Source: Posidoniimonas polymericola
GTDB taxonomy: Bacteria; Planctomycetota; Planctomycetia; Pirellulales; Lacipirellulaceae
DNA length: 64,000 nt
NCBI RefSeq assembly: GCF_007859935.1
Contig: NZ_SJPO01000001.1
Location: forward strand, 620,001-684,000
Reading direction: 5' to 3'
Of the stretch, positions 53,788 to 58,103 are shown piece after piece. Both the position numbers and the translations under genes were made by a program. Within the stretch, counting starts at the first letter, position 1; each line of letters opens with the position of its first letter. The notes beneath the pieces were generated by a model that saw nothing but the letters and a program-made list of their open reading frames with translations, was not told the origin of the DNA and searched no databases.

Positions 53788-53864
53788 GAGCGATCCTGTG
53801 GTGCGGGAGGATCCTCGAGTTCCTGCCCCCGAGCCGACGACGCAATCGAAAACGTGTGCTCGCA

Positions 53865-54425
53865 ATGAAAAAGTCCGACTTACTCCTGAAAGGCGCTGTT
53901 GGCGCTGGCGTACTGGCGGTCGTCGCCTTGGTCATTGCGAGGGCGTTCTTTGTAGACCTTTATCGGATCCCCCAGGACGGAATGTACCCCGCTCTGCCGG
54001 CGGGCAGTCGGATTCTCGTTGCGCGTCGTCCCTACGGTGACGTGTCTGACGTAGAGCGAGGCGACGTGGTCGTGTTCCGACGCGATGAGGGCGGCCAGCC
54101 TTACAACTACATCTGGCGCGTCGTCGCGTTGCCGGGCGATCAGGTGGTCGCAAGCGATCGGGCGCTCAGCGTCAACGGTGTAGCCGTTTCGCGTCAAGAG
54201 ATCCGCGAAGTCAACGGCGCCACGGTATTTCAAGAGACTGTCGGTGACGCACGCTACGAGGTTGCGTTCAGCGCCGTGCCTCAGGCAACGCCGCCGAGCA
54301 TCTCGGTGGTGGTTCCTGCCGACCACGTTTTTGTGATGGGGGACAATCGGTACGGCGCGCGAGACAGCCGCTACTTCGGGCCGATCCCGTTTGGGTCGAT
54401 TTCCGGTAAGAAGATCTGGCCGTAG
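53865..54425 (+). CDS. Signal peptidase I homologue lacking both catalytic residues
   Basis: A 186-residue membrane protein of the S26 family with one N-terminal helix (LKGAVGAGVLAVVALVIARAFFV). Family boxes are all present: B-like IPQDGMYPAL, C RPYGDVSDVERGDVVVF, D YIWRVVALPGD and E GDNRYGARDSRYFGPIPFGSI. In box B the catalytic Ser before M is Gly39 (the family usually has S-M-x-P). In box D the catalytic Lys before R-V is Trp84. It therefore should not cut signal peptides. A true signal peptidase must be elsewhere. It may bind or present substrates, or be a decoy. Confidence 0.88.
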   Translation: MKKSDLLLKGAVGAGVLAVVALVIARAFFVDLYRIPQDGMYPALPAGSRILVARRPYGDVSDVERGDVVVFRRDEGGQPYNYIWRVVALPGDQVVASDRALSVNGVAVSRQEIREVNGATVFQETVGDARYEVAFSAVPQATPPSISVVVPADHVFVMGDNRYGARDSRYFGPIPFGSISGKKIWP

Positions 54426-54450
54426 GGCTAGAGCGCAGCCTGACAGCCCC

Positions 54451-54651
54451 TTAGACGCGGTCCAGCATCGAGCCGAACACGGCCGCCACTGCGCCGATGC
54501 CGGCGCCGATGAGTGCCCCCACCGCCGCGGCTTGATCGGGCCGGGGGCCGGGCTGGTCGCTGTTACGCCAGCGGATTGCGAACGCGACGATCGACCCACA
54601 CACGCTGTAGCCGATGATCGTGCCCAACATCTTTATCAGCACTGGGTCCAT
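54451..54651 (-). CDS. Small membrane protein with glycine-rich helices
   Basis: A 66-residue protein with two membrane helices (MLGTIIGYSVCGSIVAFAIRW and AAAVGALIGAGIGAVAAVFGSML). The second is Gly/Ala-rich and could insert or pack tightly. GGGAG lies eight bases before the ATG. It resembles small phage-like or stress membrane proteins only in shape; no homologue is recognised. Confidence 0.65.
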   Translation of the reverse strand: MDPVLIKMLGTIIGYSVCGSIVAFAIRWRNSDQPGPRPDQAAAVGALIGAGIGAVAAVFGSMLDRV

Positions 54652-56456: not shown

Positions 56457-58103
56457 ATGATGACAGCGTTCCCGTCCTGCCGCTCGGCGGCCCCGATGCT
56501 CAGGCCGATCCTCGTTGCCGCGGCGGCGTGCCTGCTCGCGTCGACCGAGCGAGCCGCCGCCGACGCCATCCGCACCGTTGCCCTCTCGGATCAGATAGCG
56601 CCGGGGTTCGACGAGCCGTTCGATTGGATTATTGATTCGGGCATCGCGATCAATGATCGCGGTTCGGTTGTGTTCCGCGGGGCCGTTGGTGAACCGCGGG
56701 CGTATGGGATCTGGAGAGAAGTCGACGGCAACCTTTCGCTCGTCGCCAGTGAGGGCGATCCGGCGCCCGGAACGCCCGATGTGTTCGGAACGTTTGACTC
56801 TTCGGACTTCGTGTTCGATCGGCCGATCATCAACAACCAGGACGTGGTCCTCTTCGCCGGCACCAGCCGCGACGACACGAGCTCGCGGTTTGGCCTGTGG
56901 GCTCAGCCCAAGGTTGGTGAGGCGACGCTCGTCGCGATTGAGGATCGTGACCTGGCCCCGCCGGACTATCAGCTGGTCAGCCACTTCCGGTACACAGCGA
57001 ACGATCGCGGCGAGGTGGCCATGCACGCCGCGCAGGACGCCGGCCCCGACTCGGCGTTGCTGCAGGGGATCGCCATCGACGGGCTGTCGCTGCTGGTGCA
57101 AGAGTCCGAGGTGCTGGGGGCGAGCGGCTACCATGTCGATGACATTCCGAGGTCGCAGGTATGGATCAATGATAACGGCTACGGGATTGTCAGCGCTGCG
57201 TTGGAGGACGACGGGGCCAATCCTCACGTGGGGCTGTTGCTGACCCACCCGGGCGAGCCCGCCCAGCCGCTGGCGGTGCAGGAAGTCGCTGGCGAGATCG
57301 GCGGGGCCCAAACGTCCTACTCCTATATCGCAGGCGGGGTGAACAATCGGAACACAGTCGTGTATACGGACCAGCGTTTCTCGCGAGACGATCCGTCGCT
57401 GTTCCAGCAGAGCCTCTGGGAGTGGAGCCCCAGCTCGGGCGCCGAACTCCTGGCGAGGACCGGCGAAGTCCACGAGGACCTCGGGGTTACGTTTGTCAGG
57501 ATCAGCCACGCCGTCGTGAACGGAAACGACCAAACCGCGTTCCTGGCCCGCACCATCGACGGCGAGGGCCAGTGGTCCGCGCAGGGGCTCTGGCTCGAGT
57601 CGCCCGACGGCGTGCTCACGGCGGTCGTCGAGCAGGGCGCCGACGCGCCGGGCGCCGCGGCGCAGTTCCTGTCGGTCGGCGATGGAATCTCCGTGAATCG
57701 TCGGGGGCAGATTGCTTTCTTGGGGCACCTCCAGGGCGACGGCGTGACCAGCGACAACAGCGGGGGGATCTGGGCGACCGACGCCGACGGCCAGCTTCAG
57801 TTGGTCGCCCGTCACGGGCAGACCATCGACGTGAGCAGCGACGCCACGACGCCAGACCTCCGAGTCATCGACCGGTTGTACTTCTACACAAACAGCAATG
57901 GCAACAGCCCCATGAGCGGGCTCGAAGACGGCCGTGCTAGCCCGTTCAACGAAGCCGGCGAAATCGTGTTCGACGCCCGCTTCACCGACGGAACCACCGG
58001 CGTTTTTGTTTCGCGGCTGGTCGCCGTGCCGGAGCCGAGCGTGACGTTGCTCGCCGGGGTGGCCGCGCTCGCGGCGGCCGGTGGCGGTCGCCGGCGGGCG
58101 TGA
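56457..58103 (+). CDS. PEP-CTERM protein of the beta-propeller-like DUF7453 type
   Basis: A 548-residue exported protein with signal peptide (ILVAAAACLLASTERAAA). The body consists of repeats with INDRGSVVFRG, INNQDVVLFAG, ANDRGEVAMHA, INDNGYGIVSA, VNNRNTVVYTD, VNGNDQTAFLAR and VNRRGQIAFLG, each about 55-70 residues. This is a clear repeat series of a beta-propeller type. The PEP-CTERM tail is VPEPSVTLLAGVAALAAAGGGRRRA. Its role is unknown. Confidence 0.88.
   Translation: MMTAFPSCRSAAPMLRPILVAAAACLLASTERAAADAIRTVALSDQIAPGFDEPFDWIIDSGIAINDRGSVVFRGAVGEPRAYGIWREVDGNLSLVASEGDPAPGTPDVFGTFDSSDFVFDRPIINNQDVVLFAGTSRDDTSSRFGLWAQPKVGEATLVAIEDRDLAPPDYQLVSHFRYTANDRGEVAMHAAQDAGPDSALLQGIAIDGLSLLVQESEVLGASGYHVDDIPRSQVWINDNGYGIVSAALEDDGANPHVGLLLTHPGEPAQPLAVQEVAGEIGGAQTSYSYIAGGVNNRNTVVYTDQRFSRDDPSLFQQSLWEWSPSSGAELLARTGEVHEDLGVTFVRISHAVVNGNDQTAFLARTIDGEGQWSAQGLWLESPDGVLTAVVEQGADAPGAAAQFLSVGDGISVNRRGQIAFLGHLQGDGVTSDNSGGIWATDADGQLQLVARHGQTIDVSSDATTPDLRVIDRLYFYTNSNGNSPMSGLEDGRASPFNEAGEIVFDARFTDGTTGVFVSRLVAVPEPSVTLLAGVAALAAAGGGRRRA

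What the first reader, a model, noticed from the sequence alone, without database searches (positions are those of the whole stretch)
53865..54425. Signal peptidase I homologue with Ser and Lys both replaced
All S26 boxes are intact, but the catalytic Ser before M-x-P is Gly39 and the general-base Lys before R-V is Trp84. Losing both dyad residues while keeping the fold suggests a pseudo-peptidase that binds preproteins or guides a true peptidase. It might help sort the numerous PEP-CTERM or Tat proteins of this genome, but that is speculation.
Basis: partly seen in the sequence, partly recalled or inferred. Interest (0 to 1): 0.6.

Follow-up and report, generated by a model that had tools for sequence, protein, structure and literature searches.

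The report
Catalytically dead signal peptidase paralogue
A planctomycete carries an extra copy of the enzyme that cuts export signals off proteins, in which the residues that do the cutting are replaced while the folded shape is kept, so it probably binds rather than cuts; one distant relative has the same replacements.

Summary
Window 53865-54425 (+) encodes a 186-aa S26 signal peptidase homologue with Gly39 at the catalytic Ser site (GGA) and Trp84 at the Lys site (TGG). After the membrane helix the only lysines are 182 and 183. The predicted fold is intact (pLDDT 95; Z 20.4 to E. coli LepB). One other genome, of the same class but not the same order, has a 55%-identical protein with the same four residues: the dead site is conserved and not a sequencing error. 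The gene is very patchy: the sister species has an unrelated gene at the same site. The host keeps two S26 genes with Ser and Lys. Seven of 86 S26 sequences in my non-random set lack both dyad residues, all from Planctomycetota, needing 6 changes on the tree. Dead signal peptidases are known (S. pyogenes SipA, S. aureus SpsA): a new variant of a known kind. A membrane-anchored, non-cutting role is most likely; peptide binding is inferred, and SipA data support it only weakly. PEP-CTERM sorting is not supported: the sister species has about as many such proteins without the gene.

The parts
53865..54425 (+). pseudo-signal peptidase, 186 aa, S26 family
   Evidence: PF10502 125 bits, TIGR02227 116 bits; AlphaFold2 pLDDT 95.2; VIA Z 20.4 to 1t7d
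53868..53951 (+). N-terminal helix, residues 2-29 in the model, taken as the membrane anchor
   Evidence: Helix 2-29 in the model; hydrophobic stretch read from the sequence; no membrane predictor was run
53973..53981 (+). box B remnant Q37-D38-G39 where LepB has S88-G89-S90
   Evidence: Alignment to LepB chains; codon GGA at 39
54114..54116 (+). Trp84 (TGG) at the box D Lys145 position; the following Arg85 is kept
54339..54371 (+). box E GDNRYGARDSR (159-169): Gly, Asp, Asn, Arg and DSR kept, the Ser278 position is Ala165
   Evidence: role of Ser278 from PMC4049620
53323..53787 (+). upstream gene of unknown family, same strand, 77-base gap; conserved in the sister species, so probably not coupled to the finding
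   Evidence: No Pfam match; syntenic in G001
54451..54651 (-). small gene (66 aa) on the other strand; conserved in the sister species; marks the right edge of the variable site
   Evidence: Translation; synteny

Best explanation
It is a catalytically dead type I signal peptidase paralogue, a pseudoenzyme. One N-terminal helix anchors it in the membrane with the beta domain on the outer side. The nucleophile, the general base, the Ser that holds the base and the Ser88 position are all replaced (Gly39, Trp84, Ala165, Gln37), so it should not cut by the Ser-Lys mechanism. The elements around the peptide cleft (IP-x-x-x-M, YI-x-R and GDNR...DSR) are kept. I infer that it docks a signal peptide or another exported stretch without cutting it and so holds or presents a client to a partner. 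It was probably gained horizontally and is accessory. Shown: residue losses, predicted fold, the same residues in a distant relative, patchiness, two other S26 genes with Ser and Lys. Inferred: orientation, inactivity itself, peptide binding, client and partner.
For: Dyad and support residues replaced. No Cys; after the membrane helix the only Lys are 182 and 183, and the relative's domain likewise has Lys only at the matching C-terminal end. AlphaFold2 pLDDT 95.2, pTM 0.88. VIA Z 20.4, rmsd 1.9 A over 151 residues to LepB 1t7d; Z 16.0, 3.6 A over 130 to SipA 4n31. Relative L039 (same contig as G547): 92 of 168 identical, same Q/G/W/A. The dead site is better conserved between the two than the rest: residues 33-49 16 of 17, 80-92 11 of 13, 156-170 12 of 15, against 50-79 14 of 30 and 93-155 24 of 63. 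Codon-position differences of 53/57/105 in 163 codons point to protein-level constraint. Loss of Lys goes with loss of the box E Ser: 7 of 13 Lys-less against 1 of 73 Lys-bearing sequences, Fisher p 2.4e-6, not corrected for kinship; this protein and its relative are two of the seven. SipA, lacking dyad and Ser278 counterparts, showed no detectable peptidase activity, keeps the cleft, held an N-terminal peptide of a neighbour molecule there in the crystal, and is needed for pilus assembly (PMC4049620).
Against: No evidence of peptide binding or of any client. Only two proteins carry the Gly/Trp pair, and G547 is a MAG of 84% completeness and 7% contamination. Neighbours are not conserved between the two and give no pathway. 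The sister species does without the gene. The SipA precedent is weak on the cleft: a cleft-blocking V99R mutant and changes at the Asp and nearby Lys did not harm pilus assembly, and pull-downs with pre-FctA and sortase found no interaction (PMC4049620 section 10). In SipA Gly272 is also replaced (Asn); here Gly159 is kept. No side-chain geometry was available, so whether Trp84 leaves the cleft open is unknown.
Confidence: 0.53

Rival explanations
1. Dead scaffold that binds a membrane or protein partner (for example an active signal peptidase or the translocase) and not peptides in the cleft; the fold is kept as a structural module.
For: Trp at the Lys site could fill the head of the cleft. 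In the relative the domain is fused behind a small membrane protein that stands alone in G335, G380 and G474. SipA works with a blocked cleft. Odds raised from 0.20 to 0.27 after reading that section.
Against: The segments that face the cleft in LepB (33-49, 80-92) are among the best conserved parts between the two proteins.
Confidence: 0.27
2. Neutral relic: a foreign signal peptidase gene that lost its site and is decaying.
For: Absent from the sister species; no other Gly/Trp copy seen in the genomes searched; GC3 0.717 against 0.834 to 0.930 in six neighbouring ORFs.
Against: Full frame and intact predicted fold; the same four replacements in a protein that differs at 45% of positions, with third-position excess.
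Confidence: 0.1
3. Active hydrolase with another nucleophile or base, such as Ser48, Asp38 or His154.
For: Ser48, Asp38 and His154 are shared with the relative.
Against: No Cys, and no Lys after the membrane helix except the C-terminal pair. Ser48 sits nine residues past the nucleophile position, where LepB and most rows have the Asp of a G-D pair. The box E Ser is lost as well. SipA, with Asp at the Ser site, shows no activity.
Confidence: 0.06
4. Decoy that soaks up signal-peptidase inhibitors of the arylomycin kind made by competitors.
For: Cleft elements kept, patchy, probably horizontal; arylomycin binds LepB in this cleft (PMC4049620 section 9).
Against: No resistance or biosynthesis gene among the six neighbours tested. 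Ser and Lys that contact such inhibitors are gone (contacts recalled, not tested).
Confidence: 0.04

Closest known systems
SipA of Streptococcus pyogenes (pilus assembly factor, PDB 4n31)
   Same: Signal peptidase fold with Ser, Lys and Ser278 counterparts lost; Z 16.0
   Different: SipA has Asp/Gly (and Gly272 to Asn) and sits in a pilus operon with a sortase; here Gly/Trp/Ala, Gly272 kept, no such neighbours among six proteins tested
SpsA of Staphylococcus aureus
   Same: A second, dispensable signal peptidase homologue that lacks two conserved catalytic residues beside an active one (PMC12445088, passages)
   Different: Another phylum; its residues were not compared here; the active partner there is SpsB
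E. coli LepB, type I signal peptidase (S26A)
   Same: Fold (Z 20.4, 1.9 A over 151 residues) and box elements around the site
   Different: Ser90, Lys145, Ser278 and Ser88 equivalents are replaced; only 186 aa in all
Other dyad-less planctomycete S26 paralogues (L141 G/Q, L205 A/M, L206 A/Q, L196 Q/G, L231 A/M)
   Same: Both dyad residues replaced in an S26 homologue
   Different: Different replacements; not grouped with this protein with any support

Membership tests
Bacterial type I signal peptidase (S26A, TIGR02227) | Family-level sequence match | tested here: met
   116 bits against cut-off 47; PF10502 125 bits against 22.9
Bacterial type I signal peptidase (S26A, TIGR02227) | Signal peptidase fold | tested here: met
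   Model pLDDT 95.2, Z 20.4 to 1t7d; predicted, not solved
Bacterial type I signal peptidase (S26A, TIGR02227) | Box B nucleophile Ser | tested here: not met
   Gly39, codon GGA
Bacterial type I signal peptidase (S26A, TIGR02227) | Box D general-base Lys | tested here: not met
   Trp84, codon TGG
Bacterial type I signal peptidase (S26A, TIGR02227) | Box E Ser that supports the Lys | tested here: not met
   Ala165
Bacterial type I signal peptidase (S26A, TIGR02227) | Cleaves preproteins | not testable with these tools
   Needs an assay
SipA-type pseudo-signal peptidase | Fold kept, Ser-Lys dyad lost | tested here: met
   definition from PMC4049620
SipA-type pseudo-signal peptidase | Encoded in a pilus operon with a sortase | tested here: not met
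   Six neighbouring proteins searched in Pfam: methyltransferase, weak HD match, 3-keto-disaccharide hydrolase, DUF7453 with a weak PEP-CTERM tail, two without a match
SipA-type pseudo-signal peptidase | Needed for assembly of a surface polymer, without cleavage | not testable with these tools
   Needs a knock-out

The most novel reading that the evidence does not exclude
Planctomycetota have repeatedly turned accessory signal peptidases into non-cutting, client-binding proteins, outside the Gram-positive pilus setting in which such proteins are known; the Gly/Trp/Ala type is one of them and has moved between orders by horizontal transfer.
Probability: 0.3. Interest if true: 0.55.

Novelty: new variant of a known kind. 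Interest (0 to 1): 0.37.

Why it matters
The dead signal peptidases I found in print are from Gram-positive bacteria, with one clear role, in pilus assembly. A conserved dead form in a planctomycete, and recurrent loss of both dyad residues among planctomycete paralogues, would suggest that non-cutting signal peptidases are a wider device in protein export. It also warns that annotation as 'signal peptidase I' (this protein passes that model's cut-off) can be wrong about activity.

Tried and rejected
Sequencing error: rejected, two records and multi-base codon changes. PEP-CTERM sorting: not supported, 87 against 89 matches with and without the gene, both lower bounds because 150 of 232 and 150 of 218 candidates were scored. 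Viral origin: the scan of IMG/VR with the two-row alignment had 11 pattern matches and no relative; plasmid and phage records were not searched. Link to the upstream gene: weakened, since the sister species keeps that gene next to an unrelated one. dN/dS: dN 0.435, dS not computable. The Fisher test used rows that hold this protein twice; the figure quoted is the later one.

Rows dropped before counts: two rows with an unclear box E, four rows without the Arg or Asp of the boxes (among them L200, Ser/Gly), besides rows with too few columns, a gap at either dyad position or an identical sequence, which the script skipped silently, four more that I judged to be misaligned pieces of large split-domain proteins (ORFs of L236, L189, L230, L225), one of which one search had counted as double loss. 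Each genome search gave loci for at most its best 8 to 30 matches, so dyad states were read in those alone. The set of 86 was chosen largely by likeness to this protein, holds 8 rows (outside the planctomycete searches) and is no random sample. In the part picked by the Pfam model alone, 1 of the 22 sequences it added lacks both residues (L231).

Against the reading of many origins: the two trees place the Gly/Trp pair differently, and in the careful one it lies near L191, L196 and the L141 clade with poor support, so a shared loss among those is not excluded; a shuffle test finds double loss no more scattered or clustered than chance (86 of 500 as low).

Literature: 'no planctomycete case seen' rests, listings of an open-access library; one search showed 15 of 76 papers. 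In PMC12984324 (passages) the word Planctomycet does not occur. A comparison of dyad loss with a control phylum was considered and not run. The odds of the best explanation were lowered from 0.60 to 0.53.

[quoted passage not shown] the other scripts read files. One search was turned back because one of seven references (the small downstream gene) held a stop codon; one search repeated it without that one, another (the HD-like gene) re-cut by three bases. The structure job used the window and genome-contig loci only.

Full report
What is there. The ORF 53865-54425 (+) encodes 186 residues. It is a clear S26 family member: PF10502 125 bits, TIGR02227 'signal peptidase I' 116 bits against a cut-off of 47. 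The alignments to LepB and other solved chains and an alignment of 115 rows put Gly39 at the nucleophile and Trp84 at the general base. Two further parts of the active site are gone: the position of LepB Ser278, which stabilises the Lys (PMC4049620 section 8, read), is Ala165, and that of Ser88 is Gln37 (the number 88 is recalled and agrees with the offset, model 29 to chain 80). Gly159 (LepB Gly272), Asp160, Asn161, Arg162 and Asp167-Ser168-Arg169 are kept. Lysines occur only at 2, 3, 9, 182 and 183, there is no cysteine, and the one histidine is 154.

Fold. AlphaFold2 with 54 sequences gives pLDDT 95.2 and pTM 0.88, with an N-terminal helix 2-29 followed by a beta domain. Foldseek's 26 best chains are all signal peptidases or SipA. 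VIA gives Z 20.4, 1.9 A over 151 residues, for LepB 1t7d and Z 16.0, 3.6 A over 130, for SipA 4n31. The fold is thus kept in prediction; side-chain geometry was not available.

Is it conserved? The scan (80 loci kept of 91 relatives) gave one close relative, L039, on a contig titled Planctomycetia bacterium; one search found the same contig as G547, labelled same class but not same order. G547 is 84% complete with 7% contamination, so its placement is less sure, but the small membrane protein to which the domain is fused has homologues in three other genomes of G547's family. BLASTP: 92 of 168 identical. It has the same Gln, Gly, Trp and Ala, with codons GGG and TGG at the dyad sites. Between the two, residues 33-49 match at 16 of 17, 80-92 at 11 of 13 and 156-170 at 12 of 15, against 14 of 30 for 50-79 and 24 of 63 for 93-155. 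Differences by codon position are 53, 57 and 105 of 163 codons. Both proteins end within three residues after a G-K-K motif. Either the dead site has been held by selection for long, or an already dead gene was transferred and then kept.

How widespread? Searches covered 296 genomes of the order (single protein), 397 of the class, 43 of the family, 392 of the phylum and 95 of G547's family (the sets overlap, and those of order, class and phylum are samples). With the two-row profile only the window's genome (372 bits) and G547 (515 bits) stand out; the next match scored 104 bits, and no further Gly/Trp protein was seen among the loci read. The only other genome held for the genus, G001, has no copy.

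Locus. G001 keeps the flanks in order: upstream gene and methyltransferase on one side, small gene and HD-like gene on the other (74 and 76% DNA identity). blastn and tblastn find no significant trace of the signal peptidase there. GC3 of the gene is 0.717 against 0.834 to 0.930 in six neighbouring ORFs (the small gene was given in a wrong frame there and is not counted). In L039 the domain lies between what I take to be hisD and hisC (names recalled from the translations) and is fused behind a small membrane protein that stands alone in G335, G380 and G474. The two neighbourhoods differ, and the picture is of a movable accessory module.

Other signal peptidases of the genome. PF10502 finds two neighbouring large open frames, 663 and 709 residues, on contig C5. 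They show GSSM with CIKR and TGSM with YIKR, so Ser and Lys are present.

Recurrence. Among planctomycete S26 paralogues read here, both dyad residues are replaced in L141 (G/Q), L205 (A/M), L206 (A/Q), L196 (Q/G) and L231 (A/M) besides the two Gly/Trp proteins. After dropping fragments the tree holds 86 sequences, 8 of them and not from the planctomycete searches: 7 double-loss, all planctomycete, and 6 Lys-only, one of them. Double loss needs 6 changes, of which well supported branches force 4; loss of Lys needs 6, of which 5 are forced. L196 has a very long branch, the bootstrap had not fully settled, and the place of the Gly/Trp pair differs between the two trees. A clade of three Lys-less proteins (L141, L151, L152; 98/92) suggests another stable altered line. 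Loss of the Lys goes with loss of the box E Ser (7 of 13 against 1 of 73), as expected if that Ser serves the Lys; this is not corrected for kinship, and the sample is not random.

Known relatives by type. SipA of S. pyogenes lacks the dyad (Asp48, Gly85), keeps the cleft, shows no peptidase activity and is needed for pilus polymerisation; but a cleft-blocking mutant still worked and pull-downs with pre-FctA and sortase were negative (PMC4049620, passages and sections 8, 9 and 10). A 2026 paper also describes SipA as a homologue that has lost the dyad (PMC12984324, passages). SpsA of S. aureus is listed as inactive and dispensable (PMC12445088, passages). The SipA paper says that Gram-positive genomes encode further such proteins. 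Four literature searches (listings, one of them capped) showed no planctomycete case.

Mechanism. Shown: four parts of the Ser-Lys machinery are replaced while the predicted fold and the elements around the cleft stay. Inferred: the protein sits in the membrane with its beta domain outside and holds a client without cutting it. That the client binds in the cleft is my first choice, but the SipA mutants make a scaffold role nearly half as likely. PEP-CTERM sorting is unlikely as the role, since about as many PEP-CTERM matches occur without the gene.

Verdict. A real, conserved, most likely catalytically dead signal peptidase homologue; a new variant of a known kind, moderately interesting because of conservation across orders and recurrence in the phylum.

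Noticed in passing
L175 1612-2538 (G001:C5), the site that matches window 53788-54450: The sister species has an unrelated gene with a PEP-CTERM-like tail between the same flanking genes; the site looks like a place of gene exchange.
   Followed up: partly
L039 5767-6507; L136, L137, L139: The relative's pseudo-signal peptidase is fused behind a small membrane protein of about 95 residues that stands alone in three genomes of the same family.
   Followed up: partly
L002, L003 (G000 C5 about 265166-268718): The two large S26 frames of the genome carry Cys-pair (zinc-ribbon-like) inserts between the Ser and Lys boxes, as do several large planctomycete homologues.
   Followed up: no
L151, L152, L141: A supported clade of planctomycete S26 proteins in which the Lys is His, Arg or Gln; the Ser/His member recalls eukaryotic-type signal peptidases (recalled).
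   Followed up: partly
L056 and L058 (Shinella), L106 (Niastella), L103 and L077 (Firmicutes): S26 homologues outside planctomycetes with Ser kept and Lys replaced by Thr, His or Ala; those of L103 and L077 lie next to a Ser/Lys copy.
   Followed up: no
window 56457-58103 (+): Large DUF7453 protein with a weak PEP-CTERM tail close to the locus.
   Followed up: no
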